NCBI RefSeq assembly: GCF_001689125.2 | Contig: NZ_CP015405.2 | Coordinates: 4,304,501-4,368,500 of the forward strand | DNA length: 64,000 nucleotides | From: Blautia pseudococcoides | GTDB lineage: Bacteria > Bacillota > Clostridia > Lachnospirales > Lachnospiraceae | Reading direction: 5' to 3' | Part shown: positions 3,647 through 24,830 of the stretch, one piece after another | Numbering within the stretch: the first letter of the stretch is position 1 | Layout: each line of letters opens with the position of its first letter | Position numbers and translations under genes: made by a program | The notes under the pieces: generated by a model | Database searches by the model: none | Told to the model about the DNA's origin: nothing | Seen by the model: the letters and a program-made list of their open reading frames with translations, nothing else

Positions 3647-3652
3647 AAATCA

Positions 3653-5656: not shown

Positions 5657-5711
5657 CGGCTAAAGGTATGGGGATACTGTACTTTTCAACTACATATTGG
5701 GAGGCCTTTTT

Positions 5712-6911
5712 ATGGCACAGTTTAAATATAAGGCAAGGACACTGGATGGTAAAGTAATAAAGGGCATCATGAACGTAGCTGATGACACGGAGCTGCAGCA
5801 GAAACTGCATGAACAGGACGCTTTTTTACTGAATGCCAAAGAAATGAAGAATGCAAAAGGCGTAAAGCAGTTCAAGCCTAAAGTTCTGGCGGATTTTTCA
5901 AGGCAGCTGGGTACACTGATCGCTTCCGGCGTTACGCTTGTCAGAGCCCTGAATATTATAGCCAGCGGTGAGGCGGTCAGCCAGAAACAGCGGGGAATCT
6001 ATGAGGATTTACTCAGACAGATTCGGCAGGGTATTGCGCTCTCAGATGCCATGGAGGCACAGAACGGGGCGTTTCCGCCTTTGATGATTTATATGTACCG
6101 CTCAGCAGAGACCAGCGGTAATTTGGATAAAGTATCTATGCAGATGGCAGAACATTATGAGAAGAGCCACAAACTGAACTCAAAAATATCCAGTTCTATG
6201 ACATATCCTAAGATATTGGGGATTATGGTGGTAGCAGTTGTACTGATACTTACTAAATTTGTGCTTCCCCAGTTTGAAGAGCTGTTCGCCCAGATGGAAG
6301 AGCTGCCCCTGTCTACCAGGATTCTCATGGGGTTCAGTGATCTCCTGCAGAACCACTGGATCATAGTGCTGGTAGTGGTGATACTTCTCATTGTAGGTGT
6401 CAGAGCACTGCTGTTTATTCCGAAGGTGCGCCTGCAGTGGCACAGGTTTAAACTGAAAGTACCTCTGTTTGGAAAGCTGCAGAAGACAATCTGTACATCG
6501 AGGTTTGCAAGGACATTGAGTTCTCTGTATTCCGCGGGTATCCCCATTGTCTCAGCGCTGCAGATCGCAAGGAAGACAATCGGAAATGATTATATAGATG
6601 CCCAGTTTGATCAGGTGATCCCCTTTGTAAGAGCAGGTAATAATCTGAGTGACGGCCTGGATTTGGTAGATGGATTTGTAAGAAAACTGTCCGACTCCAT
6701 ACGGGTGGGGGAGGAGACGGGAAGTCTGGATACCATGTTGTCCTCAACTGCAGATTTTATGGAATATGATGCAGATATGGCAATTGCAAAAATGGTTTCT
6801 TATGTTGAGCCGATCATGCTTTTGGTTATGGGCGTGATCGTGGCATTTGTTATGGTATCTGTATTCAGTGCACTTTATGGTTCTTATGATTCCATTGCAG
6901 GAATGTCTTAG
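5712..6911 (+). CDS. pilC: Type IV pilus inner-membrane platform protein PilC
   Basis: The 399-residue protein is of the GspF/PilC family. The N-terminus MAQFKYKARTLDGK is typical of the family, and two T2SS-F domains follow (about 60-180 and 265-390), each with FxRQLGTLIxSG-like and FARTLSSLYSAGIP segments. Three transmembrane regions lie near 165-190, 215-240 and 370-395. PilC couples the ATPases to pilin polymerisation. Start ATG 5712 is 8 bases after GGAGG; an upstream in-frame ATG at 5697 overlaps that site. The gene sits 55 bases after pilD and 14 before pilM. Confidence 0.95.
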   Translation: MAQFKYKARTLDGKVIKGIMNVADDTELQQKLHEQDAFLLNAKEMKNAKGVKQFKPKVLADFSRQLGTLIASGVTLVRALNIIASGEAVSQKQRGIYEDLLRQIRQGIALSDAMEAQNGAFPPLMIYMYRSAETSGNLDKVSMQMAEHYEKSHKLNSKISSSMTYPKILGIMVVAVVLILTKFVLPQFEELFAQMEELPLSTRILMGFSDLLQNHWIIVLVVVILLIVGVRALLFIPKVRLQWHRFKLKVPLFGKLQKTICTSRFARTLSSLYSAGIPIVSALQIARKTIGNDYIDAQFDQVIPFVRAGNNLSDGLDLVDGFVRKLSDSIRVGEETGSLDTMLSSTADFMEYDADMAIAKMVSYVEPIMLLVMGVIVAFVMVSVFSALYGSYDSIAGMS

Positions 6912-8407: not shown

Positions 8408-9120
8408 CACTGAAAGTAACGGAGAGAGACAAAAAAATATTGCTGGTATTGGCCGTTTTTCTTATTATGTTCGGCCTGATCGCAGGGATTCTGATGCCTC
8501 TGATGGAAAATACGCAGAAGCTGGGGGAAGAGATCGCGGAGGCAGAGGTGGAAAAGCAGGAGAAAGAAATGAAAGTGACAGCACTGCCCGGGATGAAAAA
8601 CAGAATGGAAAAGGCGGAAACGGAACTGGCTGCCATGCAGGAAAAGTATTACCCTGTGATGAAAAGTGTGGAGATTGACCGTATGATGACCAACACAGCA
8701 GTAAACTGCGGCATACAGGTTTCAGATATGGACATTAAAATGCCTGACTTTACAGCGTATACCACGATTCTGAACTACGGAGATATTATATTTGGCGCGG
8801 AGCAGGAAAACAGTGAGGAGACACCCTTTGACGGTATGTATACAGCCAGTCTTACTATGAACATGACTGGCTCCAGGGAAAATCTGCAGGCCATGCTGGA
8901 TGTCACCGTCAGTCAGAAGCCCAGACAGAGGGTGACTGATTTTTCATGGCAGAAGAACCAGAAGGAAGGCAGCAGTGAATACACATTGAGTATGTCAGTT
9001 GAAATATATATGTATCAGGATGTTGAGATGTATGTGCAGGAGCGGCTTTTAGGGGAAGCTCTTGAAAATATGGAGACAGAAACCGGGACAGAAGGAAACA
9101 GTGAGGCAGAGGAGCAGTAG
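8404..9120 (+). CDS. pilO: PilO-like pilus alignment protein
   Basis: The 238-residue protein has a short cytoplasmic tail and one transmembrane helix (KILLVLAVFLIMFGLIAGIL, about 11-30). A periplasmic-type coiled coil (about 35-85, rich in Glu/Lys) and a compact alpha/beta domain (about 90-220) follow. This is the topology of PilO/GspM-like proteins, which pair with PilN to link the motor to the extracellular fibre. The start overlaps the previous stop as ATGA, indicating translational coupling. Sequence identity in this family is always low, so the call rests on topology and position. Confidence 0.8.
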   Translation: MTLKVTERDKKILLVLAVFLIMFGLIAGILMPLMENTQKLGEEIAEAEVEKQEKEMKVTALPGMKNRMEKAETELAAMQEKYYPVMKSVEIDRMMTNTAVNCGIQVSDMDIKMPDFTAYTTILNYGDIIFGAEQENSEETPFDGMYTASLTMNMTGSRENLQAMLDVTVSQKPRQRVTDFSWQKNQKEGSSEYTLSMSVEIYMYQDVEMYVQERLLGEALENMETETGTEGNSEAEEQ

Positions 9121-9128: not shown

Positions 9129-10814
9129 ATGGACAATAATATCAGAAATGTTCGTATCGGAGACGTTTTGAAAGAATACGGATATGTCACGGAAGAACAG
9201 ATAAGCGCAGCCCTGGCTTATCAGAAAGAGCATAAAGGGGTACGTCTGGGAGCTGCCTTGACGGATATGGGATTTATTTCAGAGGAGCAGCTTTTGGAGG
9301 CACTGTCCACACTTCTTCAGGTGCGGATCATTGATATTTCCACAATTGAGGTGGATGTGGAAGCTGTACAGAAGATTCCCAGGCAGCTAGCGGAAAAATA
9401 TGAGATGCTGGCTGTAAAACAGGCGGAAGGTGTACTGACCATTGTTCTGTATGACCCGCTTAATTTCTATGCTATTGAGGATATCCGACAGCTCACGGGT
9501 ATGCAGCTTGAAATCTGCCTAAGCGGCCGAAGCAGCCTGAAAAATGCCATTGGTTATTACTACAGTGAGGTGGAAGCCAGAAAAGCTGCAAGTGTGGCAA
9601 ATGAACAGTTCGAGGATCTGGCCCTTACGGATGAGTTTAATATAGACGAGGAGGGAGATGATGACACTCCCATTATCAACCTGCTCAGCCGTTTGATCGA
9701 CAGGGCATATAATACAAATGCGTCAGATATCCATATCGAACCATTTGAGGATAAGACTACAGTCCGTATGCGTATTGACGGTGTGATCGTAGAATTTGTG
9801 ACACTGCAGAAAAACCTGCATGCGTCTTTGATCGCGAGGATCAAGATTTTAGGCAACATGGATATTGCAGAGCGGAGAGTTCCCCAGGACGGGCATTTCA
9901 GAATGAGGGTGGCAGGAGAATATGTGAATATCCGAGTGTCTGTGATTCCCACAGTGTTTGGGGAAAAGGCCGTGCTCAGACTGCTTGCCAATAACTCCAA
10001 CATAGATTATCCGGAAACTTTTGGTATGCACGAGGGTGATTACAAGAAATTGAAGAGTATGCTGGGGTCTCCAAATGGGATCATTTATTTTACAGGACCT
10101 ACAGGCTCCGGAAAAACCACCACACTGTATATGATACTTACAGGGCTGTCTAAACGTGCAGTGAATATTTCCACCATAGAGGACCCGGTGGAAAAGAACC
10201 TGCCTAAAATCAACCAGATGCAGGTAAACAATCAGTCTGGACTGACTTTTGAGATTGGTCTGCGGGCGTTGCTGCGTCAGGACCCCGATATTATCATGGT
10301 AGGTGAAACCAGGGATGTGGAGACTGCATCCATTTCAGTCCGTTCGGCAATTACCGGTCATCTGGTGTTTTCCACGCTTCATACGAATGATGCGTCGTCT
10401 TCGATCATCAGACTGGAGGATATGGGGCTGCAGCCTTATATGGTTGCTAACTCGCTGGTAGGGATCATCGCGCAGAGACTTATGAGGAAAATATGTCCTG
10501 ACTGCGGGGAGGAGACCGCTCCCACTGCGGAGGAGAGACAGGTCGTGGGGCCGGATATCAAGAAAATCATGCATCCTAAGGGATGTCCACAGTGTAACTA
10601 TACGGGATATAGAGGAAGGATCGCGATCCATGAAGTGCTGCTGATAGACAGGACTGTCCGTAAGATGATCATGGAGGGGGCTTCTGCGGAGGCCATACAG
10701 GATTATGCTGTTGAGAAGCAAAATATGAAGACACTGAAGGATGCCGGACTGAGTATGGTTCAGGAGGGGGTCACAAGTGTGGAAGAACTGAAAAAGGTAG
10801 CGTATTACAAATAG
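9129..10814 (+). CDS. pilB: Type IV pilus assembly ATPase PilB
   Basis: The 561-residue hexameric extension motor has two N-terminal MshEN-type segments: RIGDVLKEYGYVTEEQ at 10-25 and RLGAALTDMGFISEEQLLEA at about 40-60. Such segments bind c-di-GMP in MshE and some PilB proteins. The ATPase core carries Walker A GPTGSGKTTT (about 323-332), the Asp box, Walker B DPDIIMVGE (about 385-393) and a His box. A tetracysteine zinc site (CPDC...CPQC, about 456-490) is characteristic of PilB/GspE extension ATPases and absent from PilT. It starts 8 bases after pilO; the ribosome site GGAG lies within the preceding gap. Confidence 0.96.
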   Translation: MDNNIRNVRIGDVLKEYGYVTEEQISAALAYQKEHKGVRLGAALTDMGFISEEQLLEALSTLLQVRIIDISTIEVDVEAVQKIPRQLAEKYEMLAVKQAEGVLTIVLYDPLNFYAIEDIRQLTGMQLEICLSGRSSLKNAIGYYYSEVEARKAASVANEQFEDLALTDEFNIDEEGDDDTPIINLLSRLIDRAYNTNASDIHIEPFEDKTTVRMRIDGVIVEFVTLQKNLHASLIARIKILGNMDIAERRVPQDGHFRMRVAGEYVNIRVSVIPTVFGEKAVLRLLANNSNIDYPETFGMHEGDYKKLKSMLGSPNGIIYFTGPTGSGKTTTLYMILTGLSKRAVNISTIEDPVEKNLPKINQMQVNNQSGLTFEIGLRALLRQDPDIIMVGETRDVETASISVRSAITGHLVFSTLHTNDASSSIIRLEDMGLQPYMVANSLVGIIAQRLMRKICPDCGEETAPTAEERQVVGPDIKKIMHPKGCPQCNYTGYRGRIAIHEVLLIDRTVRKMIMEGASAEAIQDYAVEKQNMKTLKDAGLSMVQEGVTSVEELKKVAYYK

Positions 10815-10909
10815 ACAGGCGGAAACAGTGCGGTTGTTTGGTCAGTGTATATGCAGACTGTTAAATGCAGAACAGGATTTCGGCAGAAATGAAAATGGAG
10901 GGCAAAGTA

Positions 10910-11959
10910 ATGTATGATCTGAATCAATTAATAATGATGGGAAGGGAGGAGAATGCTTCTGACCTTCATATTTCTGCGGGAATGCCGCTTATGATGCGTG
11001 TTCATGGAAAGCTGGAACAGACACTTGCACAGCCGGATGACCATGAGACAGAGCTTATGCTGTATGGCCTTTTGGATGAGAGACAGAAGGAACGTCTGGC
11101 AGAGGGATATGATATTGACTTTGCGCTGGAAACTCCGGACCACAACAGGCAGAGGGTGAATGTGTTCCGGCAGCAGGGGAAGATTGCAGCTACTATACGT
11201 CTGCTGAATAATCATATCCCCACTTTGGAGGAACTGCATATGCCCCAGCTTCTGTACAAACTGGCTGAGGAACCCAGAGGGCTGATCCTGGTCACAGGGC
11301 CTACGGGAAGCGGTAAGTCAACCACATTGGCAGCAATGATCGAACACATTAACCAGACAAGGGCAGAGCATATCATAACCATAGAAGATCCGGTTGAGTA
11401 CACGTATGAGAGTAAAATGGCTCTGATACACCAGAGAGAGACAGGAAGAGATGTGATTGATTTTGCATCTGCGCTGCGAAGTGCACTGCGTGAAGACCCG
11501 GACATTATCTTGGTGGGAGAGATGCGTGACTATGAGACCATCATGGCTGCGCTGACTGCGGCTGAGACAGGACATCTGGTGCTGTCAACGCTCCATACCA
11601 CAGGTGCGGCACAGACGATTGAGCGTGTGATTGACGCGTGTCCTTCAGAAAGCCAGAATCAGGCAAGAACACAGCTGGCAGGAGTTTTAAAGGGTGTTAT
11701 CACCCAGTGTCTGATGCCTGTGCCGGATGGCAGAGGAAGGATCCCAGGAACAGAGATTCTTCTAGGTACTGATGCGATCACGAATCTGATCCGTGAGAAT
11801 AAGAGCCATCAGATGAGTAGTATGATGCAGTCAGGCGGTGCTTCGGGTATGCATACGCTGAATATGGATCTGATGAGACTTGTGCGGGAAGGGTATATAA
11901 CAAAGGAGACGGCGGTCCAGTATACTAATGATAAAAGGGATTTGGAACAGTATTTCTAG
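10910..11959 (+). CDS. pilT: Type IV pilus retraction ATPase PilT
   Basis: The 349-residue retraction motor opens with the N-terminal motif NASDLHISAGMPLMMRVHG of the PilT family. Walker A GPTGSGKST is at about 130-138 and Walker B DPDIILVGEMRD at about 195-206. The C-terminal AITNLIRENKSHQ stretch (about 288-300) matches the PilT signature AIRNLIRExKxHQ, which is needed for retraction. There is no tetracysteine site. The start was set at ATG 10910, 7 bases after GGAGG; the frame is open to 10865 without a ribosome site. Presence of PilT means the pilus is probably dynamic and may support twitching or DNA uptake. Confidence 0.95.
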   Translation: MYDLNQLIMMGREENASDLHISAGMPLMMRVHGKLEQTLAQPDDHETELMLYGLLDERQKERLAEGYDIDFALETPDHNRQRVNVFRQQGKIAATIRLLNNHIPTLEELHMPQLLYKLAEEPRGLILVTGPTGSGKSTTLAAMIEHINQTRAEHIITIEDPVEYTYESKMALIHQRETGRDVIDFASALRSALREDPDIILVGEMRDYETIMAALTAAETGHLVLSTLHTTGAAQTIERVIDACPSESQNQARTQLAGVLKGVITQCLMPVPDGRGRIPGTEILLGTDAITNLIRENKSHQMSSMMQSGGASGMHTLNMDLMRLVREGYITKETAVQYTNDKRDLEQYF

Positions 11960-12081: not shown

Positions 12082-15000
12082 GTGGATCAGATGGAAAAAG
12101 GGGTATTGTACAGGAAAATTCACAAAAATAGAACAGACAGGAACAGAAACCAGGGTGGATATACGCTGGTTGAACTTATTGTGGTCATTTGTATTGTGCT
12201 GATACTGGCTGGAGGGGCAGTGTTTGGCGTGATGACGTGGATCCGGTGGTCGCAGTTTAAGGAGCAGAATGAGTATGCGAAGACGTTGTTTAGTGCAGCG
12301 CAGAATCATTTGACGGAATATAGTGAGAATGGGCAGCTTGGCGTGCTGCAGCAAGTTCTATATGAAAATGAAGACTATAGAAATCAGGTAAAGGTGAATG
12401 AATTAGTGAATGACGAGGGCGGGAAATATAGCCTTGATTCCTTATGGCCAGCCAGCCAGGGAAAAACTGACAAAGAGAAATACAGAGGTGAGATCTGTTA
12501 TCTTAAAGGCGATGCTCAGACATTCAGACAATATCAGGAGTACAAGACTGGCAATGGAGATAAACCAGATGTTGAAATTATTGCATTATACGATCTGCTT
12601 TTACCATATGTATATGATTCTTCTATACTGAATGCGGCTGTTTGTGTGGAATTCACTCCGGAAGACGGACAGGTCTTTTCTGTTCTGTATAGTAATAAAA
12701 ATGAAAAGTTTGAATATGGCAATGTAAATAAAAAGGGAACCGTTGATATTACTAACCGGGAATATAGTGTCCGTAAAAAGAATCTAGTGGGGTATTATGG
12801 TGTTGACACATTGTCAAAAGCTACTAGTACAAAAGCGCAGAAGCCATCACTGACTGATGTTAAGTTAAATAACGGGGATACTTTGAACCTGTCCTTCAGG
12901 CTCAGCAAGGTAAAAGAAGCTCTTACAGCAATGACATATGAAATTACAATATGCCATAAGGATACTAAAGATAAAAAGCTGGTCATCCAGCTGGACGGAA
13001 CAAAGCTGCAGAGAAAAGATGCTGAGAGCAGGGAACCGGTCATATGTAAAGTGAGTAAATACAATAATACCGGGAAGCGGCTGGAATCCAGGGAATTCCC
13101 TGTTTTGGCCTGGCTGGAGGAAAATGAGACTGTAAGAGTGATTTTAGATGCAGTGGACTTGAGTGCGTCCAGTGCATGTTATAATTATGCAATTGATTTA
13201 ATTAACGCGGAAGATCCTAAGGGTACGTCTGATGTCTATGAGACATTTAAGAATTCCTACAGCTTTCATCGTTTTGGTGTAAATACGGAAGACATTTTCT
13301 GTACGGTTAAAGGTTCAGGTGCTTACTATAAACCGACAGCAAAGAAGCAGAGCAATAGTACAAACACGTATTTTGCTTCTTATAAAGACACAGAAAATAA
13401 TGACGACAGCAGTACATATACATATTCCTTAACAAGTATAAGACATTTATATAATATTCGTTATCTGGAAGATAAAACAGAGGAAAAAAAAGAAATGCAA
13501 GTGATACATAATGTATATCAGCTTGCCAATAATATTGACTGGAAAAAATTTATATCAGAAGGAAATCTGTATGATACAGACCGGGTTTATAAGAAAGAGA
13601 AAAAAGAAGGAAAATTATCATCTGTTTCTCCCATAAAGGAGGCAAATACGGCGTTCCCTTCCATTATACAATTAAAGTCTACATCAACCTTAGAAAGTAA
13701 AGGGGATAAAGCATACTCTATAAGCGGTATGACGCTGCTGGAAAGTTCTAATAGTAAAGTGGGTTCTTATGGTACAACAGATATTGCAGGAACGATCCAA
13801 AATGTAAAAAATGGGCCTGTCGGTTTATTTATTCAAAATAACGGGGCAATACATAAGCTTATATTGGATCAAATTACAGTGAATGGCACAAATTCAGTAG
13901 GGACTTTTTCTGGAAAAAATGCAGGGCAGTTATCAGAGCTTACAGTCAATAATAGTGAAGAGGAGAAAAGTCCAAGCATTGTGTCAGGTGTATCTAATGT
14001 TGGTGGAATCACAGGAGAACAGATAACAAAAAGCAATGCTGGTCCAGCAGAACTTAAGGCGCTTGTCAACCGTGCAGCTGTGACAGGAGTCACGTACGCC
14101 GGTGGTATTGCAGGTCGTTTTCAGGCAGATGAAACTAACAGCATTTTGGTCAAAAACTGCACCAATTATGGAATTGTGGAAGCTGTGCCGTTTAATGAAA
14201 AAGGTCAGACTAATGCGGCTACAGCTAAGTATATCGGGGGGATCACAGGACTATGCGATAATAAGACTGACGATGAGAAGCAGCTGCAAATAAAGAATTG
14301 TACCAGTTCGCCCCAATATACATCTTTAGAAATAGAGAATTTGCTTCAAAAGGGTAATGAAGAGATTCTTACTGCAAAATTAAACGGAGTGTACGTTGGA
14401 GGGATTGCGGGATATAACAGAAACAGCCTGATAGAAAACTGCAATACGGAACAGGAAAAAAACAGAGAAGGATTTATCTTTGGATTTCAGTTTGTGGGTG
14501 GAATCGTTGGATATAATGAAAGCAAGGCTGTATCGCTGGATGGAAAAGAAAATGTAAACGAAGCAAATGTAATTGGTAACAGCTATGTGGGTGGAATAAG
14601 TGGATGTAACAGCGGCAGCTTAGGCGAAAACGCCGGCATTCAAATCCCCGATCTTGAGAGAGATGAAAGTAAAAAAATATCAAATTGGATAAATAAAGGA
14701 ATTATTGCCGCCAGTGGAGATTATGTGGGGGGTATCACAGGTGTCAACACAGGCATCATTGAGAATTGCAGCAGTGAGGTAACCTCAGATAATACAGCAA
14801 GGAAGATCACGGATGCACAGACCCTGCATGGCGACTATGCAGGTGGAATTGCAGGTTATAATAATGGAAGTATCAGGGCAGCAGAACCGGGTCAGGACTA
14901 TTTCAGGAAAACAATTCCGCTAGTCAGTTATATTGCAGGAAACAATTATGTGGGCGGAATTGTAGGATATAATGATGTGGAAGCAAGAGTGGAAGACTAT

Positions 15001-18000
15001 ACACTTGCAGGAGGATATATTAAAGGGTCGGGTACTTTTGTAGGCGGATACGTGGGGCTGAATGCATCTAAAGCGTTGTTGGAGGATCAGGTATTAGTAT
15101 CGAACCCGAATGTAGTTACAGGTAATTATTGTGTCAGTGGCATAATAGGAGGAAATATTGTAGCATCAAATGAAAACATCCGGGCTGAATTTAATTCAGA
15201 CAATTTTTTGGGGAATGTAGACGCAACCGCTTTTACAGGTGGGTTTATAGGTTATAATCAGCTTTTACAGGGCAATGCAGATGAGGAAAAAGATAGGGAT
15301 AAGACTGGAGCCTTAGCAAAAGAGATTATAGAGGAGATGGAAGCGTCTGGGAATATTTTAGAAGAGGTTGTACAAGAAATATCCGATGTATCAGGCGAAG
15401 AAACGGAGAACCGCCTTACGATAGAAGGTTTGGAGGATAACTCCGATCAATTGATCAAATTTGGAAGTCTAAATGCGGATATCTATGTGGGAGGTGTAGT
15501 AGGGTATAATACTCCGGATACCAGGCTTACGATCGCTAATGTTGTAAATAAGACACCGGTGACAGCAAGAAAAGGGATTACAAACTCTGAGAAGAGGCCT
15601 GAAGGCAACGAATCTGTAGAGGAAGAATTTTCATTTTCTTATGCTGGAGGGGTTATTGGTAAGGTCGAAAAGTATGTGATAGTGGATAACTGTAGTAATC
15701 AGGATGTGGGGGATGTGACAGCGCAGGGAACATATCTGGGAGGTATCTGTGAGGTTAATGAGGGCTTAATTAAGAAGTGCAGTGTATCCAGTATTGGAAG
15801 TGCTGATCGTAGTTATGTTGGAGGCATTGCAGGATTAAATAAGGGAACTGTGGAGGATTGTAGATTTACGGATAAGACGATTACAGGTAAAGATTATGTA
15901 GGTGGGATTGTATCAGAAAATTATGGCACCATTAAGACACCATACCTGTTCCAGGCCAATGTAGTTGCCACTGGGGATTATGTAGGTGGTGTGGCTGGTT
16001 ATAATTATGATAGTGGTGTTATCTTGCTTAATGAGAGAAGGCCTGAGGATGTAAAGATCAATGATCTGGCTATTGCCAGTGTCAGTTCATCAGGTGATTA
16101 TATTGGCGGCGTTACGGGTAAAAACCATGGAAACCTGAATAATGACTATAGTTTTGCTCTATCCGGCAGTGTAAATGGCAACAAAGTTGTAGGAGGATTT
16201 GCAGGTAGTAATATGGATCACCCCATGCAAGGGCTTACAAATAATGCGTCGGTTACTGCTGTTAACGGAACCGTAGGTGGAATCGGTGGTGAATCATCAG
16301 GGGTCATAGAGGAATGCTGGAATAACGGCATCATATCGTCTACAAAGTCAGGTGTAGCAGGTGGTATCGTTTCATTTAATAATAGTAGTATAAAAAATTG
16401 TACTGATACCCAGATTGTAACAGCATCTAATGGAGACTGCGGAGGCATTGCCGCGGAAAACAATGGAAAGATTACGGGGAGTAAAGTAGAAGGCAGGATC
16501 ACATTCAGTGGAAATGAAAATATCGGTGGGTTGGTAGGGAGAAATAATAAAAAAGGTTTAATTGAAAACTGTACAATACGTGATATTACCGTTGAGAATA
16601 TGGATAACAGCGGTTCCAGCAATATAGGCGGAATAGCAGGAATCAACAGCGGGGAAATCAGGTTAGGCAGTAACGCAGTTCAAAATGCAAACGTGTATTC
16701 CTATACTTCTAAAAGTAATTTAGGGGGAGTAGCAGGGATCAACAACACGGAAAGCCAAATCAGTGGTGCGGAATTGGCAGATGTTATGATAGGATTTGCC
16801 GGTAACAATGCCACCTATGCTAATATGGGAGGTATTACAGGGGCTAACTATGGTTTTATTGAAAAATGCACTGTGGCTGCAGATATAACCGGTAATATGG
16901 GCAGTACGGATACGGGGTATGGCGGTATAGCCGGAGTGAATGAATCGAGTATTTTAAAATGCAGTTATGATGGGATGTTAAAGGCCAATGGTTCTGCAGA
17001 CAATTTGGTAAACATGGGAGGGATAACCGGCAAGAATAATGAGAACGGTAATATTAGTTATTCTTATATAGGTTTGGCAAAGAACACCACAATTGAATCG
17101 GGATTTCAAAATGGCAACGTGGCTATGGGATATGTAGGCGGCCTGGTGGGATGGAATTATGGTAAGATCATGGATTGCGATAACGCTAGCATGTCTCAGA
17201 AAGAAGTAAAAGTGATTAATCGTGCAGGCCATACCGGTGGTATTGTCGGCAATAATGTAAAAGGCGCCGTGGTTACCGGAAGCAGAGAGGAATTGCTGTC
17301 TACAGGAAAGAAATGGTCTGTAGAATCCACGTACTATACTAATGATGCAGGAACCGGTGGTATTATGGGATACAGTTCCTCTGGCAGAGACATAAGTTAT
17401 GTGGCTAATTATGCGGATGTCAGTGTTAATAAAAACAGTTCAAATGTCACTGGTGGCGGCTTAATAGGCCGAATGGAAAACAACGAGAATGGAGCCATGA
17501 AAATAGCTTATTATGAGAATTACGGTGATGTAAAAGGGATTCTCGTTGGGGGCGCTATTGGGCGTGTAAAATATAAAGGGGCATCTTTTGAGAAGTGCGT
17601 AAACTATGGGGATATAGAGGCCGGTAAAGTGGGTGGTACATCTATAGCGGCAGGTTTAGTTGCCTCATTTTATGCAAATGATATAACCATGGATATGCCA
17701 ATCTCTATATTTACAGCATGTAAAAATTTCGGTGATATTACAAGTGTTGACCAAGCAGGAGGAATTACGGGACATACCAATCCATTAAAGACAATTACTA
17801 TTAAATATTCTGACTGTGTTAATGAAGGCTGTATAAAAGGCAGCACAGCAGGAGGAATAGGGGCGGTAATAAACAGTGCAAATACATATTTTTATCGCTG
17901 CAGAAACTATGGTAATAGTTCTGATTCCGGTTTTTATGGTATTGTACCCCAGACAAGTTACAAGAGAATACAGGATGCCTTTAGTATCACAAATAAGGGT

Positions 18001-21000
18001 GGTTTGGCAAAAAGCGGTGGCACCATTGAAGAATCTTATTATTTCTCTGGGAGATCATCCGCTGGAGTTAAATTAACTGTAAATGCCCAATCGGGGTTAT
18101 ATACTATTTACAATTCTAATAAAAAATTTCAACTGACAGGATTAGTGAATAACCCTCAAAATAGCTTTAATGACGCTTCCAAGTTTACTTTTATTGAGGA
18201 AGAAAAAGGTCCACGTCAGCTTATTTACGAGGAAATAGACCCTAAAATTGTTGAGTATTATAGAGGTAAGACTGCAGCATTAGATTCACCGGATTCACCG
18301 ACAGGTCTGACAATGCAGAATAAGTCAGGTGTTTTAGTAGTGAAATGGGGACACAAAAACAGCACTTATGATAAGGATCAATTGGTATACAGGGTGATTG
18401 ATACAAAGGATAATGACCGGGAAGTTTTCAGCAATTTTGAAGATCCTATGGATATTTCTTATGGTATTGAGTTTTACGGTATGCAGATTCCTGTTGAATA
18501 TTATGGATATAAGATGGAGGCATATGTAAGAACGGTCAGTGGAAAATATAATGAAGAGGATTATAAAAAAGAAATATACGGACCGGACAGTGGCAGGCGT
18601 CAGCCAGGGGCATCTGCCTGGGTGAAGGCGGAGACGTCTGTAAAAGAACCATTACCAGAGCCTAAAATACATATAGAGCTGGCTGCATACGGACAAAACG
18701 GTGGGTGTAATGCCCAGAGTTTTGTGGCTGTTCTGGATAATAAGGAGGATTATTCAGGAAGCAAAGCTACAAAGATAAATATAAGTTTATCTAATGGAAA
18801 TAGTTTTTCAATTAACACTGCTAATGGAAAATCTGTAGCAAATACATCTCTGCAAAATATAAATGAAAATCAGATAATAACTGCATATGCGGTGGCTGCA
18901 GGTGATTATTCTGAATCCGGTCGTGTAACTTTGCAATGTGCGTTTTATGGAGTAAACGCGCTGAAAAATAATAATTATGTGACATCTGTTTTTTCGGAAT
19001 TCTATGGAGATAGGACCGGAAATTTATACAACCAGATAAATATGACAAAAGCAAATAATGTGACAGAATTATATATGAATTCCGAATTAGTAGTAAAGGA
19101 TTACAGATTTAATGATATGGCAGAGAACCAAGTATTAACTTGCGATATTGCAGTTGCAGCAGGCGTCTCCCATGTAACACAGAATTCAGGAACTATGACG
19201 AGTAATCTGAATAATCTACCGGAAGATTTATTGGACTATAAAAATATAACGGTGCGTACATATCCCTGGCAGAACCAGTCATATGTCTGTTGGTATGGCC
19301 ACCCGGTGAAAAATGGAATAACTGAGACCGAATTGATATCTTATATGAAAAACGGTGATCTTCTGGACAAAGAAAGACAGAATAGTCCTATTTTTACAAC
19401 AGGTTCAGATAATACAAAGATTTCTTTAAAAGCAGGATATGTTATAAGGCGTAATAGTGATGGGACATATGAAGTGATCTATAGTGCTATTCTTGCCAAC
19501 AATGATTACAGCAGGCAGGTTAAGAGCCGTAATTACGTTGTTTCAGATGATAAGAGCAAGGTAACGGCAGCAAATCCGGCATATGACAGAGCTATCCAGC
19601 CATCCCCTGTTATAAGTAAAATATATCCTCTTAGGAGCGATGGGAAATCATATAATTTTGTATGGGATGAAGGAAAAGCAGATAAAAATGCAATATATGA
19701 TCTGCAGTTGCGGGGTGTTACGAATGATGGAACAAAGGTACTGTTAAAGGCAGTCACTGTAAATAGTGAAACACCGGACAGTTATCATGCAGAAGGGAAC
19801 GCCTACTGGACTTATACATTCCAGGACAACGAGGAGGTGTGGAATTATCCAAATATTGTATTATCAGTAGCACACGTGGGTGCCACTGACGGAAATAATA
19901 AGACTCTGAAATTTCCTTCCAGAAGCGAACAATCATTTGATATACATTTGAAACTTTCACAAGTATCAAGGCCCACAGTCCTTCTTCATAAAAATGATAG
20001 TGAGGTAGAGAAAAACTCTCTTAGTTATGATATTACCTGGAATCAGGTACCTACTGCAGAACGCGGGCATATAGGTGGATATGAGATAACGGTCAACCGC
20101 TCAAGTAGGGATAATGAAGCTACATCAAAGTATGATAAAAAAGATGACTTTGATAAAGACCTTGAAAAGTATAAGCAGTCATATGAAAGCAAAGGCGGAG
20201 ATGTAACAGAGGAGGCTGGAAACCAAAACGCGGTTTATGTGTGGAAGGAAAATAAAAACGGTGGGACAGTAGAAAAAAGAATGGAATTGGGCTGGACGCA
20301 AACACCTGAACTTACCATATCAAAAAATCTTACAGAGATATGGACATTCAATATGGAAGAAGGAGATAAGGAAAAAAATACTATAACCAGAATGCTGGAT
20401 TTAAATGATTATGAGAGGGGCGAATTATTGGAAATTTCTGTCCGTGCATTGTCAGCGCTTGGCAATACTGTTTATCGAAATGGTCCTGATGGTGTAGTGA
20501 GAGAAATGACATTGCCCAGCCGTCTTATAGTGCCTGACGTTTCCGGGATAGAATCTACGCCTCAATATAAAAAACATGAGGATGGAAAAACAGATACATA
20601 TATGACGAAGAACCAATTTACCGAAGAAGGGATTTCTTTATCTTTAGAGGATGAGCATGAAAATCTCTATCAAGGAAAATATCAGATTGCAATGGCTGTA
20701 TATGAGGAACCTGTTGAGGAGGATATAGCAGATACATCCGCAAAAACACCAGGAGATGCACCTCAGGGAGACAGTACTTCGGATTACTGGAATTCAGGCA
20801 GCGGATTGATCAAAACGCTGGTCACGAAAGAGTCACAGACAGTTATGAATGGAAATTTCAGCAGTTCTTCATATGTATTAAAAGGAATTAATACTGAGTA
20901 TGCAGGGAAATGGCTGAAAATAGCACTCAGGAGTATATCGGAAAGTAATATTAGTTCCTGGTGGTCTGATGAGGATGATGCCACAGAAAAAACTGTAAAT

Positions 21001-22524
21001 TACAAATGGATTCATATACCAAGGGTTCAGGTGGAAGAAACACAGCAGTCTGAAGGGATAAAAACAATATATTATGATAATCACGGAGGATGGACACTGG
21101 ATAATCTTGTGACACATATTCCCGTGGAACACAAATCGTTAAAGTTTGAGGGGCGCCTTTTTGCAGATGGATATCGTATACAAAGAATAAGGGCTGCTTC
21201 TGATACTGATATTGATCAGGATGTTCATTATACCGCATATGGAGTAGATTGGATTTACCTGGAGCCGTCAGGTGATGGAGGATATCATGTGTACTGTAAC
21301 TCATCGGCACAGGATGTTGGGATAGGGAATATTCAAAATGAAGCCCCGGCCTGCTGGCAAGATGATACGGCTGTGTATTGGACTACCATTTATAAAGGGG
21401 ATTTTGCGGAACTTCCATTTACAGAAAATGCATGGGAATCTTCGGATGCCACAGAGCCTATTGAGGTTCGTTCCTTTATAGAATGGGAAGAAAGCACAGA
21501 GGAGAATATTCCGGTATTTACATTTGTCCTTTTAGATGCTGAAAAAATCAATGGATCTGTATATGATAAGAATTTATTTACATCACAGGTATCCGTACAG
21601 GCTGTAGTTTCAGGGTCTGAGGATGATGGAAATCTTACAAGGTATGAAAACTCACCGATATCACTTTGGTTCCGTTATAAACAGGAGCCGGATCTCTGGC
21701 TTACAGACACCACCACATTAACGGATTATGCGCCGGAACCAATGATAGATTTGTTATGCGAAGTTTCTTCCTACAGGGATATCGCATACCAAATTACGGA
21801 TACGGGAAAAAACAGAAGGGTTTATCAGATAGAGATCACGAACCCTGAAGATGGTTCAGTTCTTGATAAGAGGTATATAAGTGCTTATGGTGCAGGTATT
21901 GATCCTGTAAGTATACTTCTGCCTCTCCGGGAGGACATATATGCCCAATATGCAGGGAAATATATTTCTGTGCGGGCTGCAGAAATTGTATCAGAACAAG
22001 GGCTGGGCAGATGGAGTGAATGGACACAGCCTGCAATATTGCCTGACTTAACAATACCGCGTCCGGAAGTGGAACAACAGGACAGCAGTATGGATGCATA
22101 TGTAACGGAGAGCAGTGGTTTTGAAGACCGTGGGATGGTTTCTATCCAGGCAACAAAACTATGCTGGACGTATGATCAGGAGACCGATGCTAAGTTAGAG
22201 GGATATGAAATAGAGATTGGAACCGGTCCTGCATCAATAAAGATATGGAGGGATTCGAGTGGATCCTGGTGTTATCAGACAGGGGATGGTGGACAGGAGT
22301 ATATCCGTAAGGGAGAACCTGCCAGACTTATAACGCTTGTCTCACAGGTGACAATAAATGAATCATCTTATGAACTATCAACTGATATAAACTTAACAGC
22401 AACAGCGACAGAGAATGGAATGGAATTTACGGTTACAACTCCGTTCCCAAATGTTTTGTTTACGTTTAATCATGAACAGATAGAGGCTGTTTTTGACTCT
22501 TCTGTATCTATATTGCCAATATAA
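12082..22524 (+). CDS. Giant modular pseudopilin/adhesin with GLUG-like repeats
   Basis: This 3480-residue protein begins as a type III prepilin: a basic leader ending GG (25-26) and mature start YTLVELIVVICIVLILAGG with Glu at +5. Residues about 45-600 form a globular region. About 35 repeats of the pattern aromatic-V/A-GGI-A/T/V-G-x-N, often followed by an ENC/KNC strand, run from about 605 to 1930, resembling GLUG-type beta repeats of bacterial adhesins. Residues about 2060-3480 contain fibronectin-III-like segments (VVKWGH near 2080, SYDITWNQ near 2645, TKLCWTYDQ near 3360). There is no C-terminal membrane anchor or sorting signal, so anchoring must be through the pilin helix. The GTG at 12082 follows AAGGA by 4 bases; ATG 12091 is the alternative. 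It precedes three minor pilin genes. A pilus-tip adhesin is inferred. AT content is visibly higher than in neighbouring housekeeping genes. Confidence 0.9.
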   Translation: MDQMEKGVLYRKIHKNRTDRNRNQGGYTLVELIVVICIVLILAGGAVFGVMTWIRWSQFKEQNEYAKTLFSAAQNHLTEYSENGQLGVLQQVLYENEDYRNQVKVNELVNDEGGKYSLDSLWPASQGKTDKEKYRGEICYLKGDAQTFRQYQEYKTGNGDKPDVEIIALYDLLLPYVYDSSILNAAVCVEFTPEDGQVFSVLYSNKNEKFEYGNVNKKGTVDITNREYSVRKKNLVGYYGVDTLSKATSTKAQKPSLTDVKLNNGDTLNLSFRLSKVKEALTAMTYEITICHKDTKDKKLVIQLDGTKLQRKDAESREPVICKVSKYNNTGKRLESREFPVLAWLEENETVRVILDAVDLSASSACYNYAIDLINAEDPKGTSDVYETFKNSYSFHRFGVNTEDIFCTVKGSGAYYKPTAKKQSNSTNTYFASYKDTENNDDSSTYTYSLTSIRHLYNIRYLEDKTEEKKEMQVIHNVYQLANNIDWKKFISEGNLYDTDRVYKKEKKEGKLSSVSPIKEANTAFPSIIQLKSTSTLESKGDKAYSISGMTLLESSNSKVGSYGTTDIAGTIQNVKNGPVGLFIQNNGAIHKLILDQITVNGTNSVGTFSGKNAGQLSELTVNNSEEEKSPSIVSGVSNVGGITGEQITKSNAGPAELKALVNRAAVTGVTYAGGIAGRFQADETNSILVKNCTNYGIVEAVPFNEKGQTNAATAKYIGGITGLCDNKTDDEKQLQIKNCTSSPQYTSLEIENLLQKGNEEILTAKLNGVYVGGIAGYNRNSLIENCNTEQEKNREGFIFGFQFVGGIVGYNESKAVSLDGKENVNEANVIGNSYVGGISGCNSGSLGENAGIQIPDLERDESKKISNWINKGIIAASGDYVGGITGVNTGIIENCSSEVTSDNTARKITDAQTLHGDYAGGIAGYNNGSIRAAEPGQDYFRKTIPLVSYIAGNNYVGGIVGYNDVEARVEDYTLAGGYIKGSGTFVGGYVGLNASKALLEDQVLVSNPNVVTGNYCVSGIIGGNIVASNENIRAEFNSDNFLGNVDATAFTGGFIGYNQLLQGNADEEKDRDKTGALAKEIIEEMEASGNILEEVVQEISDVSGEETENRLTIEGLEDNSDQLIKFGSLNADIYVGGVVGYNTPDTRLTIANVVNKTPVTARKGITNSEKRPEGNESVEEEFSFSYAGGVIGKVEKYVIVDNCSNQDVGDVTAQGTYLGGICEVNEGLIKKCSVSSIGSADRSYVGGIAGLNKGTVEDCRFTDKTITGKDYVGGIVSENYGTIKTPYLFQANVVATGDYVGGVAGYNYDSGVILLNERRPEDVKINDLAIASVSSSGDYIGGVTGKNHGNLNNDYSFALSGSVNGNKVVGGFAGSNMDHPMQGLTNNASVTAVNGTVGGIGGESSGVIEECWNNGIISSTKSGVAGGIVSFNNSSIKNCTDTQIVTASNGDCGGIAAENNGKITGSKVEGRITFSGNENIGGLVGRNNKKGLIENCTIRDITVENMDNSGSSNIGGIAGINSGEIRLGSNAVQNANVYSYTSKSNLGGVAGINNTESQISGAELADVMIGFAGNNATYANMGGITGANYGFIEKCTVAADITGNMGSTDTGYGGIAGVNESSILKCSYDGMLKANGSADNLVNMGGITGKNNENGNISYSYIGLAKNTTIESGFQNGNVAMGYVGGLVGWNYGKIMDCDNASMSQKEVKVINRAGHTGGIVGNNVKGAVVTGSREELLSTGKKWSVESTYYTNDAGTGGIMGYSSSGRDISYVANYADVSVNKNSSNVTGGGLIGRMENNENGAMKIAYYENYGDVKGILVGGAIGRVKYKGASFEKCVNYGDIEAGKVGGTSIAAGLVASFYANDITMDMPISIFTACKNFGDITSVDQAGGITGHTNPLKTITIKYSDCVNEGCIKGSTAGGIGAVINSANTYFYRCRNYGNSSDSGFYGIVPQTSYKRIQDAFSITNKGGLAKSGGTIEESYYFSGRSSAGVKLTVNAQSGLYTIYNSNKKFQLTGLVNNPQNSFNDASKFTFIEEEKGPRQLIYEEIDPKIVEYYRGKTAALDSPDSPTGLTMQNKSGVLVVKWGHKNSTYDKDQLVYRVIDTKDNDREVFSNFEDPMDISYGIEFYGMQIPVEYYGYKMEAYVRTVSGKYNEEDYKKEIYGPDSGRRQPGASAWVKAETSVKEPLPEPKIHIELAAYGQNGGCNAQSFVAVLDNKEDYSGSKATKINISLSNGNSFSINTANGKSVANTSLQNINENQIITAYAVAAGDYSESGRVTLQCAFYGVNALKNNNYVTSVFSEFYGDRTGNLYNQINMTKANNVTELYMNSELVVKDYRFNDMAENQVLTCDIAVAAGVSHVTQNSGTMTSNLNNLPEDLLDYKNITVRTYPWQNQSYVCWYGHPVKNGITETELISYMKNGDLLDKERQNSPIFTTGSDNTKISLKAGYVIRRNSDGTYEVIYSAILANNDYSRQVKSRNYVVSDDKSKVTAANPAYDRAIQPSPVISKIYPLRSDGKSYNFVWDEGKADKNAIYDLQLRGVTNDGTKVLLKAVTVNSETPDSYHAEGNAYWTYTFQDNEEVWNYPNIVLSVAHVGATDGNNKTLKFPSRSEQSFDIHLKLSQVSRPTVLLHKNDSEVEKNSLSYDITWNQVPTAERGHIGGYEITVNRSSRDNEATSKYDKKDDFDKDLEKYKQSYESKGGDVTEEAGNQNAVYVWKENKNGGTVEKRMELGWTQTPELTISKNLTEIWTFNMEEGDKEKNTITRMLDLNDYERGELLEISVRALSALGNTVYRNGPDGVVREMTLPSRLIVPDVSGIESTPQYKKHEDGKTDTYMTKNQFTEEGISLSLEDEHENLYQGKYQIAMAVYEEPVEEDIADTSAKTPGDAPQGDSTSDYWNSGSGLIKTLVTKESQTVMNGNFSSSSYVLKGINTEYAGKWLKIALRSISESNISSWWSDEDDATEKTVNYKWIHIPRVQVEETQQSEGIKTIYYDNHGGWTLDNLVTHIPVEHKSLKFEGRLFADGYRIQRIRAASDTDIDQDVHYTAYGVDWIYLEPSGDGGYHVYCNSSAQDVGIGNIQNEAPACWQDDTAVYWTTIYKGDFAELPFTENAWESSDATEPIEVRSFIEWEESTEENIPVFTFVLLDAEKINGSVYDKNLFTSQVSVQAVVSGSEDDGNLTRYENSPISLWFRYKQEPDLWLTDTTTLTDYAPEPMIDLLCEVSSYRDIAYQITDTGKNRRVYQIEITNPEDGSVLDKRYISAYGAGIDPVSILLPLREDIYAQYAGKYISVRAAEIVSEQGLGRWSEWTQPAILPDLTIPRPEVEQQDSSMDAYVTESSGFEDRGMVSIQATKLCWTYDQETDAKLEGYEIEIGTGPASIKIWRDSSGSWCYQTGDGGQEYIRKGEPARLITLVSQVTINESSYELSTDINLTATATENGMEFTVTTPFPNVLFTFNHEQIEAVFDSSVSILPI
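13890..17880 (+). repeat. Coding region of about 35 degenerate GLUG-like protein repeats
   Basis: Within the giant gene, motifs such as YVGGIAGYN, YVGGIVGYN, YAGGIAGYN and NIGGIAGIN recur roughly every 30-50 residues. The DNA copies are diverged, so this is old protein-level repetition, not recent tandem duplication. Spacing is irregular and the intervening loops vary in length. Confidence 0.85.
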
Positions 22525-22548: not shown

Positions 22549-23226
22549 ATGAAAAAGAGGTCGTTAAGAAATAATAAAAATGGTTCTGGGCTTATTATTG
22601 CCATAGCCATAATGGCGGTACTTATGATGCTTAGCCTGGCCTTGCTGCTGGTGTCTTTTTCTCTGTATTCTACAGCCAGAAGACAGCAGGATTCCGCCCA
22701 ATGCCGCGAACTGGCCCAATCTCTGAGCAAGGAATTAGAATATGAAATTACAATCCCGTCAACAGAGGCCTACAAGAGCGGAGCGGCAGAAAAATACCCT
22801 TTGTGGTTTTATTTAAGATTTAATGTATGGCAAAATAGTTGGAAATATTTTAACAATGATGAGAGAGGGCATATGGCGGAGTATGCTTATCGGCATTTTA
22901 ACGTAGGATTTACAGCTAATTTAAACAAGGAACTGACAGATGGGATGTCTGTATTAATGTATTGGATAAGTGAAGATGAGGTCAGTGATAAGAATGGAAC
23001 TCAACTGGTAGTATCTGTTACAAGTGAAAAGGGAAAAGCCAAAACAACAATTACCTCCTATTTTGAACTTAATGTCACAGACAGTAAAGAATTACCAAAG
23101 GAAGATGAGGATGATTATGATGCACTTTCCGGTGGGCAGGAATTTGAAAAAAAGAATATTGATCCGGACGGAAATACAATTGATGAAGGTGAGATATGGA
23201 GCTGGGAATTAAGTGAGCGGGAGTAG
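22549..23226 (+). CDS. PilX-like minor pseudopilin
   Basis: The 225-residue protein has a basic leader (MKKRSLRNNKNGSG) followed by a hydrophobic helix GLIIAIAIMAVLMMLSLALLL. It lacks the +5 glutamate of ordinary pilins, as seen in PilX/GspK-like initiator subunits that sit at the fibre tip. The helix continues as RRQQDSAQCRELAQSLSKEL, typical of the amphipathic half of alpha-1. The C-terminus is acidic (PKEDEDDYD). Position after the giant and before PilV/PilW-like genes supports the minor-pilin cassette reading. The stop overlaps the upstream region of the next gene. Assignment to PilX is by position and helix pattern only. Confidence 0.75.
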   Translation: MKKRSLRNNKNGSGLIIAIAIMAVLMMLSLALLLVSFSLYSTARRQQDSAQCRELAQSLSKELEYEITIPSTEAYKSGAAEKYPLWFYLRFNVWQNSWKYFNNDERGHMAEYAYRHFNVGFTANLNKELTDGMSVLMYWISEDEVSDKNGTQLVVSVTSEKGKAKTTITSYFELNVTDSKELPKEDEDDYDALSGGQEFEKKNIDPDGNTIDEGEIWSWELSERE

Positions 23227-23239
23227 AAGGTGTGATGAA

Positions 23240-23617
23240 ATGATGAAGAACAGAAAGAGCGGAACGACAATGATAGAGACTTTAGTTGCATTTTTAGTTG
23301 TTGTATTGATCACTGCAATGTTTTCAAAGGTGGTATCAGTTTCAGTGCATATGTTAAATTCTTCTCGGAAGGTGTTGGCTAATACAGAAAAGTTTAATGA
23401 ACAATATTATAAATATGAAAATTTAAACAATATGAAAACCTCTTCTATGGACTTATATTTGGAGATTGACAAGGAGCAGGCAACTGTACTAAATGGTGCA
23501 TCTTATGTAGAACTCAACTTGAGCAGAGAATCCGGATTAAAATATAACGTAAACGATTGGGGTACAGGGTTTGTAATGTACACGTTTGAAGTGCCAGAAG
23601 CGTCAACTGGGAAATAA
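23240..23617 (+). CDS. PilV-like minor pseudopilin
   Basis: The 125-residue product has leader MMKNRKSG with cleavage after Gly8 and mature N-terminus TTMIETLVAFLVVVLITAMF, Glu at +5. The MIETLVA start is typical of PilV/GspI-like minor pilins. The remaining 90 residues are a small, tyrosine-rich globular part. Start ATG 23240 lies 7 bases after GAAGGTG (23226-23232); the frame is open from a GTG at 23213 that would overlap the previous gene. A second ATG (23243) is equally possible. Confidence 0.8.
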   Translation: MMKNRKSGTTMIETLVAFLVVVLITAMFSKVVSVSVHMLNSSRKVLANTEKFNEQYYKYENLNNMKTSSMDLYLEIDKEQATVLNGASYVELNLSRESGLKYNVNDWGTGFVMYTFEVPEASTGK

Positions 23618-23639: not shown

Positions 23640-24830
23640 ATGAACCGCGGCAGACATAAAGAAAGATATAATAAATATACGGTACTAAAATTAAAAAAGA
23701 CCTTCAATAGTAAAAAGGGGGTTACATTAATTGAATTGATAGTGACATTTGCGCTTATCAGTTTATTTATATTGCTTTCCACCCAAGTTATTTCCTCTGC
23801 TATGAACGTTTATTATAAAATCCAAAGCATTAATTATGGCAGGCAGGTATCGGATACACTTATGGATAAAATAGCCGGAACTATATCTGCAGCTCAGGTG
23901 AATATCGAACGAGTGAACATTGAAAATGAGGAATTAAATACAAAATATACATTGCAGATCGAGGACGATATGTCCAAGATAGATTTGTATAATGGAAGTG
24001 GGAGTCACATCTACATAACAAATACAAAGCCAGATACAGGTGGTGATAAGCAATTGGTTATTCATTATTACCGGGTTGAATCTGTTTTGAATGATAGTAA
24101 TAAGAAATTAGTTTATGAGCCGATAGACTGGACTTTTGATAAAAAAATGTATCTTGATTATAAAATTACTAAGTTGGAATTTTCATTAGCGGATCCCGAT
24201 GGTATAATATATCCCGAAAATGTAATTAGAATTCATTTAGAGATAGACCACAAAAAGTTTGGCAGTTATTCGACTACAAGATATGTGGAGTGTTATAACT
24301 TCCAGGATAAAGATGATTTTGAGAAAATTAAAGGTCCTGGGAAAGCTGAATCGGGTGGTGAGACGCCAACACCAGACCCACCAGAAAATAGCCAAACTTA
24401 TCCGGATACAGATATTGTAGTGAAAAATGATTATTGGCCGACAGCGGAAGATTTTGCAGATAATGAAAATAAAATAATAGTTCTTAAGCCGGGTAATATT
24501 TTCAAGTATTCATATGGTGATGTTGATAAGTATTATGTCATGGTAGGAGAAAGAGACCTGAACAATTGGAATTATAAGACACCTGCGGATTACATAGCCA
24601 ACGGTAATAATTTAGAGTTTGAATTGACAGGGACGATCCATGAGTATTCAAGTGACGATGATATTAAAACTAATGTGAAGCATGGTGATCTATGTATATG
24701 GGGCGGGGAATATTATGCTTATAAAGGATATGATGAAGAAGTGAAAAACCCCGGCATCCAACCAGAGTCCTGGATAAAAATTGTCAATGACAGGATAAAA
24801 GATGGGCCCGCGATCCGGACACGGGAATAG
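23640..24830 (+). CDS. PilW-like minor pseudopilin with a carbohydrate-binding-like C-terminus
   Basis: The 396-residue prepilin has a long basic leader ending KKG (27), then [20 protein letters not shown] with Glu at +5. The helix continues with a [11 protein letters not shown] region as in PilW/GspJ proteins. A globular beta-rich part spans about 90-235. A Pro/Thr linker ([14 protein letters not shown]) follows, and the C-terminal part ends in [16 protein letters not shown]...[11 protein letters not shown], a pattern like carbohydrate-binding module family 5/12 (aromatic Y-Y-x-x-x-G and W-x-K-I). The final residues DGPAIRTRE run into sequence of another gene remnant, so the native C-terminus may have been altered. 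Last gene of the operon. Confidence 0.8.

What the first reader, a model, noticed from the sequence alone, without database searches (positions are those of the whole stretch)
12082..22524. A 3480-residue pseudopilin: giant adhesin built on a type IV prepilin N-terminus
A single gene joins a canonical class III prepilin signal (GG|YTLVE with Glu+5) to about 35 GLUG-like repeats and a long FN3-like C-terminal part, with no other membrane or wall anchor. It is followed by PilX-, PilV- and PilW-like genes, the same kind of set that forms the tip-initiating complex with the separate adhesin PilY1 in proteobacteria. Here the adhesin would itself be a pilin and could extend far beyond the fibre tip. 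Modular pilins are known in streptococci, but those I know of are several times smaller; the size and repeat architecture seem unusual.
Basis: partly seen in the sequence, partly recalled or inferred. Interest (0 to 1): 0.9.

Follow-up and report, generated by a model that had tools for sequence, protein, structure and literature searches.

The report
Giant modular pilin with solenoid stalk
A gut-type bacterium encodes a single 3,480-residue protein that begins like a type IV pilus subunit and lies in a pilus operon; it is predicted to carry a long repeat-built stalk and a chain of beta-sandwich domains that would likely work as an adhesive extension at the pilus tip, and relatives of about 1,500 to 7,700 residues occur beside pilus genes in other Clostridia.

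Summary
Confirmed: window 12082-22524 is one uninterrupted 3,480-aa ORF with a class III prepilin signal (G26|YTLVE), one hydrophobic helix, at least 32 GLUG-type repeats and an all-beta C-terminal third (predicted), in a pil cluster and followed by K-, I- and J-like minor pilin genes. It is no fusion error: 94 of 96 compared relatives cover pilin, adaptor and stalk. It is no singleton: at least 32 of 299 sampled same-family genomes have a signal-bearing ORF of 1,500 aa or more, up to 7,662. All 24 genomes with the close PilC orthologue have a giant (22) or a short homologous pilin of 198 or 213 aa (2) before the K-like gene. Pilin module and stalk are conserved; the head varies most. The stalk is predicted to be a beta-solenoid like that of IgA1 proteases, without their catalytic motif. 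Best reading: a modular minor pilin of the tip complex that holds an adhesive head away from the fibre. Processing, tip location and adhesion are inferred. Modular pilins, and even prepilin plus GLUG, are in print; the giant class as a regular part of a pilus set is what I did not find described.

The parts
3618..3646 (+). promoter-like site ahead of the pil cluster (12 of 12 consensus bases)
   Evidence: only 12/12 site of 63 found (shuffle mean 49.9), a consensus match, not proof
3807..4229 (+). pilA-like pilin, 140 aa
   Evidence: N_methyl E 3.9e-9, ComGC/GspG-like below cut-off
4263..4706 (+). small one-helix protein, 147 aa, kept in most related clusters, function unknown
   Evidence: no Pfam match; matches at this kind of place in many loci
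4808..5656 (+). pilD, prepilin peptidase
   Evidence: A24_N_bact and Peptidase_A24
5697..6911 (+). pilC, platform protein
   Evidence: T2SSF E 7.7e-48, two stretches
6926..8407 (+). PilM/PilN-like protein (name inferred from place and look)
   Evidence: no Pfam match, sequence read
8404..9120 (+). PilO-like protein
   Evidence: PilO 19.3 bits, cut-off 22: weak
9129..10814 (+). pilB, extension ATPase
   Evidence: T2SSE E 3.1e-126 and MshEN
10865..11959 (+). PilT-like retraction ATPase (by size and lack of MshEN)
   Evidence: T2SSE E 1.3e-49
12082..22524 (+). giant modular prepilin, 3,480 aa
12160..12804 (+). pilin module, residues 27-241
   Evidence: 54-residue helix in the model; short pilins of G152 and G172 align to residues 22-241; profile of the N-terminal region matches six solved-structure pilins
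12805..13671 (+). adaptor region, residues 242-530 (boundaries approximate)
   Evidence: covered in 94 of 96 relatives
13672..18051 (+). GLUG repeat stalk, residues 531-1990 (boundaries approximate), predicted beta-solenoid in the part modelled (to residue 1093)
18052..22521 (+). head, residues 1991-3480, predicted string of beta-sandwich, FN3-like domains (2284-3480 modelled)
22549..23226 (+). K-like (GspK/PilX-type) minor pilin without Glu+5
   Evidence: sequence; same order in relatives
23213..23617 (+). I-like minor pilin
   Evidence: ComGD E 0.0012, below cut-off
23640..24830 (+). J-like minor pilin, 396 aa, long C-terminal part
   Evidence: N_methyl 22.0 bits, cut-off 21.2; ComGF E 0.018, below cut-off

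Best explanation
The 3,480-residue ORF joins a class III prepilin N-terminus to a GLUG repeat tract predicted to fold as a beta-solenoid stalk and to a head of predicted FN3-like domains, and it would work as a giant modular minor pilin that the pil machinery encoded beside it likely builds into the pilus tip complex to hold an adhesive head away from the fibre. Shown by sequence: signal with Glu+5, single hydrophobic helix, repeat tract, pil cluster, K/I/J-like neighbours, the slot kept in relatives, conserved pilin and stalk with a more variable head. Predicted: the solenoid and sandwich folds. Inferred: Sec export, cleavage by the neighbouring PilD, docking through the N-terminal helix with the K-, I- and J-like pilins as fourth (H-type) subunit, tip display, ligand binding by the head, and PilT-driven retraction. 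The ligand is unknown; CBM2 and F5/8-type modules in a few relatives make glycans the first guess.
For: Pilin: N_methyl above cut-off; A1 profile matches six PDB sequences, every one a pilin or geopilin domain (best S. sanguinis PilE1, E 1.8e-8); predicted 54-residue helix. Slot: 24 of 299 family genomes have the close PilC (44-100% identity), 22 with a giant and 2 with a 198- or 213-aa homologous pilin before a K-like gene; in the genus 2 of 20 have this PilC and the same 2 have the giant. Neighbours: of 36 stretches with a signal-bearing giant, 32 hold at least one machinery gene and 29 have a prepilin-like gene without Glu+5 directly downstream. Modularity: pilin, adaptor, stalk covered in 94, 94, 96 of 96 relatives, head parts in 65 and 61; pilin similarity follows PilC (rho 0.63, p 0.0005), head does not clearly (0.16, p 0.09) over 18 loci. 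Binding modules in relatives: CBM_2 in 2 and F5/8C in 3 of 120 listed (two of each rechecked).
Against: No experiment shows cleavage, piliation or binding. H, I, J, K names are by order and weak HMM scores. In 7 of 36 stretches no K-like gene follows directly, and 4 of 36 show no machinery gene nearby. A short pilin can fill the slot (2 of 24), so the giant is not needed by every such pilus. No named binding domain was found in the window's own head. Foldseek gave no PDB match with E at or below 0.001 for the N-terminal model, and C-terminal matches have TM-scores near 0.1. The globular part of the pilin module was hardly tested by the fold comparison.
Confidence: 0.7

Rival explanations
1. 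The giant is a pilin adhesin, but displayed along the fibre body or near its base, not at the tip.
For: System-specific minor pilins are spread along fibres in other species (PMC10191384, passage); a flexible linker could allow it (PMC8179133, passage).
Against: Gene order with K-, I- and J-like genes in 29 of 36 stretches, and the lack of any other prepilin in the cluster to fill the fourth place, point to the tip set; a stalk and head this bulky would be hard to pack in a fibre (inference).
Confidence: 0.14
2. The prepilin helix serves only as a membrane anchor and export signal; the giant stays in the membrane as a surface adhesin and is never built into a pilus.
For: Nothing here tests polymerisation; uncleaved or unassembled pilins sit in the membrane (general knowledge).
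Against: Glu+5 and signal are kept: 116 of 121 proteins match by a simple pattern; the giant travels with PilC and pilin-module similarity follows PilC.
Confidence: 0.11
3. The cluster is a secretion-type pseudopilus and the giant is its plunger or a substrate carrier.
Against: MshEN-type PilB plus a second, PilT-like ATPase; relatives' clusters also carry both in 12 or more stretches by the 60-bit rule, though that rule cannot fully tell the two ATPases apart.
Confidence: 0.04
4. It is an M26-like peptidase on a pilin, as one paper proposed for the prepilin-IPR011493 architecture.
For: PMC8179133 reads that architecture as an M26 peptidase (passage); the solenoid matches IgA1 proteases; Peptidase_M26_N matches 1 of 15 distant giants (E 6e-5).
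Against: No HExxH motif in 121 of 121 listed proteins nor in 39 of 39 giants of the genome loci; the matched part is the scaffold repeat.
Confidence: 0.005
5. A sequencing or assembly error fused separate genes.
For: None found.
Against: Single 5.13 Mb contig, 100% complete; the order of parts is the same in relatives at 94 to about 30% identity.
Confidence: 0.005

Closest known systems
Modular type IV pilins, type case PilB of Streptococcus sanguinis (PMC8179133, passages read)
   Same: Pilin module with a large non-pilin part grafted on; proposed tip display; adhesion shown for PilB.
   Different: PilB has 454 residues after processing and one vWA module; the most extreme multi-domain case that paper names has 860 residues. 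Here 3,480 residues with a solenoid stalk and a multi-domain head.
Prepilin plus IPR011493 architecture listed in PMC8179133 (IPR011493 is the GLUG motif by recall)
   Same: Probably the same pairing of prepilin signal and GLUG repeats.
   Different: There it is named in one sentence and read as an M26 peptidase; here it is a scaffold without HExxH in 121 of 121 proteins.
ComZ of Thermus thermophilus (PMC6561018, passages read)
   Same: A minor pilin with a beta-solenoid, argued to fit only at the pilus tip.
   Different: Its solenoid is about 380 residues, 6 nm long, inserted in the pilin fold, and it binds DNA; no long head.
H/I/J/K minor pilin tip complex with PilY1 (PMC10191384, passages read)
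   Same: Set of four minor pilins including one without Glu5, next to pil machinery.
   Different: No PilY1 match here; the adhesive part would be on the fourth pilin itself.
M26 IgA1 proteases (PDB 7uvk, 6xja)
   Different: No catalytic HExxH, prepilin instead of wall anchoring, pilus context.

Membership tests
Type IV pilin | Class III signal: leader ending in Gly, then a hydrophobic tract with Glu at +5 | tested here: met
   N_methyl 22.1 bits over cut-off 21.2; G26|YTLVE; TIGR02532 was just below cut-off for the whole protein (14.0 of 16.3) and above it for the first 249 residues (20.2)
Type IV pilin | Long continuous N-terminal helix | tested here: met
   Predicted helix of 54 residues; prediction only
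Type IV pilin | Lollipop fold with antiparallel sheet | tested here: inconclusive
   Fold comparison covered mostly model residues 416-1042
Type IV pilin | Cleavage by prepilin peptidase and assembly into a fibre | not testable with these tools
   PilD is encoded in the cluster; processing not observed
Modular pilin | Pilin module plus a domain not specific to pilus biology | tested here: met
   Glug above cut-off, predicted solenoid and sandwich domains
Modular pilin | Grafted part has a direct role in a pilus function | not tested
   needs experiment
H-type member of an H/I/J/K tip complex | Encoded with I, J and a K that lacks Glu+5 | tested here: met
   Window order; 29 of 36 relatives' stretches by pattern
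H-type member of an H/I/J/K tip complex | Sequence or structure specific to H (GspH/FimU) | tested here: inconclusive
   GspH model hit on the first 249 residues is weak (E 0.032, 14.2 of 80 bits)
M26 IgA1 protease | Zinc-binding HExxH motif | tested here: not met
   absent in the window protein and in 121 of 121 proteins
PilY1 tip adhesin | PilY1 C-terminal beta-propeller (PF05567) | tested here: not met
   no PF05567 in the giant nor in the genome (control weak, rang in 1 of 14, below cut-off)
Sortase-anchored wall adhesin | C-terminal LPXTG-type motif with hydrophobic tail | tested here: not met
   no such C-terminus; 4 of 121 proteins have an LPXTG-like string in the last 60 residues, none has a second hydrophobic segment

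The most novel reading that the evidence does not exclude
Gut Clostridia have a type IV pilus subtype whose tip complex is built around a giant pilin: a tether of tens of nanometres that lengthens by repeat gain and swaps its head, so that retraction reels in whatever the head binds. In the extreme, a 7,662-residue member ends in two peptidoglycan hydrolase domains, which would make the pilus tip a long-reach enzyme carrier acting on neighbouring cells or on the cell's own wall.
Probability: 0.4. Interest if true: 0.82.

Novelty: new variant of a known kind. Interest (0 to 1): 0.62.

Why it matters
How pili of Gram-positive gut bacteria stick is poorly known. If these giants are pilus subunits, a large set of proteins now named hypothetical or 'prepilin-type' become candidate tip adhesins, and their exchangeable heads give a direct way to ask what Lachnospiraceae bind in the gut. 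They also escape current finders: PilFind was built for proteins under about 350 residues (PMC3244431, passages read). Two genomes (G152, G172) with an ordinary pilin in the same place offer a natural comparison of the machine with and without a giant.

Tried and rejected
Rejected: fusion artefact, M26 peptidase, PilY1, LPXTG anchoring (see rivals and membership rows). A c-di-GMP riboswitch or other known RNA ahead of pilA: no Rfam match in the window, only sub-threshold ones in 3100-4300, none in 7 related loci (18 had been asked for). Sequence search of PDB with the whole giant found nothing. Foldseek with the N-terminal model gave no match with E at or below 0.001. The long C-terminal part of the J-like protein has no Pfam match.

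Dropped rows: my first HSP table showed some heads as absent wrongly (P0007 against its near twin P0008); the chained table replaces it and uses P0002-P0097, leaving out the last 24 of 120 listed proteins, mostly near-identical ones of about 2,220 aa. From I dropped G126 and G291, whose signal match was spurious (38 to 36 stretches), and did not count the next genes of G116 and G179a as K-like; G454 was not recognised by the pattern. The PilC limit was set after seeing the gap between E 1.4e-110 and 5.3e-89. The 13 proteins were chosen partly because one search already listed CBM2 or F5/8C for four of them, so its 2 of 13 are not rates; in the 120 listed the counts are 2 and 3.

Literature: no description of pilins above 1,000 residues in what I saw. 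The library holds open-licence papers only; I read passages of seven papers, none in full.

Full report
WHAT IS THERE. Window 12082-22524 (+) is one ORF of 3,480 aa. It has a class III prepilin signal with Glu at +5 (N_methyl just above cut-off), 32 strict GLUG-type repeats between residues 641 and 1924 against a shuffle mean of 2.5, and no second hydrophobic segment or C-terminal sorting signal. It follows a pil cluster: pilA-like 3807, a small unnamed gene 4263, pilD 4808, pilC 5697, a pilM/N-like gene 6926 (no Pfam match), a weakly PilO-like gene 8404, pilB 9129 with MshEN, and a PilT-like gene 10865. Three prepilin-like genes come after it: 22549, which lacks Glu+5 as GspK/PilX do, 23213 and 23640. 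The genome is a single 5.13 Mb contig with five N_methyl matches at E up to 1 (four above cut-off), four of the five in this cluster, and no PilY1 match (weak control).

NOT A SINGLETON. A protein search gave 2,147 proteins with E at or below 1e-3 among 7,996 candidates scored; not all of these need be prepilins. The 120 listed are 2,052-4,429 aa long; with the query, 116 of 121 carry the signal by a simple pattern. Of the other five, four look truncated or wrongly started and one is a pattern miss. In 299 same-family genomes a 12-sequence profile matches 113, mostly ordinary pilins; at least 32 genomes have a signal-bearing open frame of 1,500 residues or more (my count from the truncated list). 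In the class sample of 391, five genomes of four other families have one (2,035-3,752 residues). The nearest named relative (77% identity) is from an uncultured Blautia sp., so the source is probably Blautia or near it; that is inference.

CONTEXT. I called genes around the 26 other genomes and in 15 further stretches. Of these 41 stretches, 36 hold a giant with a sound signal by my rule; the other five are the two short-pilin loci, two spurious cases and one missed by the pattern. Of the 36, 32 hold at least one machinery gene at 60 bits or more and 29 at least two; in 29 the next gene is a prepilin-like gene without Glu+5. The seven exceptions: in G004 and G116 weakly K/I/J-like genes stand before the giant; G026 has a Glu+5 pilin next; G179 (two stretches), G222 and G534 show none by my pattern. 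Giants stand in tandem in G184, G160 and G120 and in the isolate AC2029; the first of the pair has no GLUG-type match in G160, G120 and AC2029.

THE SLOT. In the family sample 24 genomes have the close PilC orthologue (44-100% identity, E at or below 1.4e-110; the next genome is at 38% and 5.3e-89). Of these, 22 have a giant; G152 and G172 have a homologous pilin of 198 and 213 aa just before a K-like gene. The short pilins align with residues 22-241 of the window protein and so mark the pilin module. G172's match runs a few residues past its stop, so a shortened remnant of a giant is not excluded; G152's short pilin lies on another contig than its PilC. In the genus, 2 of 20 genomes have this PilC and the same two have the giant (3,480 and 3,997 residues).

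MODULARITY. Across 96 relatives, pilin, adaptor and stalk are covered in 94, 94 and 96, the two head parts in 65 and 61; median identity where covered is 46, 40, 42, 31 and 34%. Over 18 loci, pilin-module similarity follows PilC similarity (Spearman 0.63, Mantel p 0.0005), the stalk less (0.46, p 0.003), the head not clearly (0.16, p 0.09). Named modules in relatives: CBM_2 in 2 and F5/8C in 3 of 120; DUF285 in 2, and LRR, M26_N and fn3 in 1 each, of 15 distant giants; List_Bact repeats in 4 and LRR in 1 of a further 14 ORFs, one of which is not a prepilin; some single names in that list are probably chance hits in repetitive sequence.

MECHANISM. Sec export, PilD cleavage, docking with K-, I- and J-like pilins as the fourth subunit, PilB extension and PilT retraction follow from family knowledge (PMC10191384: a tip complex of minor pilins capped by a subunit lacking Glu5; passages) and are inferred here. 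The adhesive role is inferred from the variable head, the binding modules in a few relatives and the analogy with S. sanguinis PilB (PMC8179133, passages).

NOVELTY. Modular pilins are known. The pairing prepilin-IPR011493 is in print, read there as an M26 peptidase (that IPR011493 is GLUG is recalled). ComZ is a solenoid pilin (PMC6561018, passages). What I did not find is pilins above 1,000 residues described as a regular part of a pilus set. Hence 'new variant of a known kind'.

EXTREME MEMBER. G179 has a 7,662-aa ORF with the signal FTITE and 90 repeat matches, beside pilA-, pilT-, pilB- and pilD-like genes. It ends in NlpC/P60 (about residues 7419-7500, E 4.9e-15) and Hydrolase_2, a cell wall hydrolase (about 7557-7660, E 1.5e-13). 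Its N_methyl score (19.1) is below the cut-off (21.2), and the genome is 7.4 Mb with 7% estimated contamination, so its source is less certain.

Noticed in passing
L170:1-13566 (-) and L169:10578-20000 (-), genome G179: A 7,662-aa prepilin-type ORF ends in NlpC/P60 and Hydrolase_2 cell wall hydrolase domains; a 2,563-aa ORF lies directly downstream.
   Followed up: partly
L047/L048 (G184), L049 (G160), L051 (G120), L091 (AC2029): Two giant prepilin ORFs in tandem; in three of the four loci the first has no GLUG-type match.
   Followed up: partly
L061/L062 (G002): The I- and J-like pilins are enlarged too (579 and 629 aa); the J-like one carries List_Bact repeat and MucBP matches.
   Followed up: partly
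window 4263-4706: Small one-helix protein between pilA and pilD, recognisable in many related clusters, no Pfam match.
   Followed up: no
window 24330-24827: C-terminal 166 residues of the J-like pilin look like an extra module rich in Trp/Tyr/Gly; no Pfam match.
   Followed up: partly
G000:C1:4676648-4676722 (L001, L074): A fifth prepilin (open frame of 270 aa) away from this cluster; a second, diverged PilC-like gene lies at 462708-463742 (26% identity).
   Followed up: no
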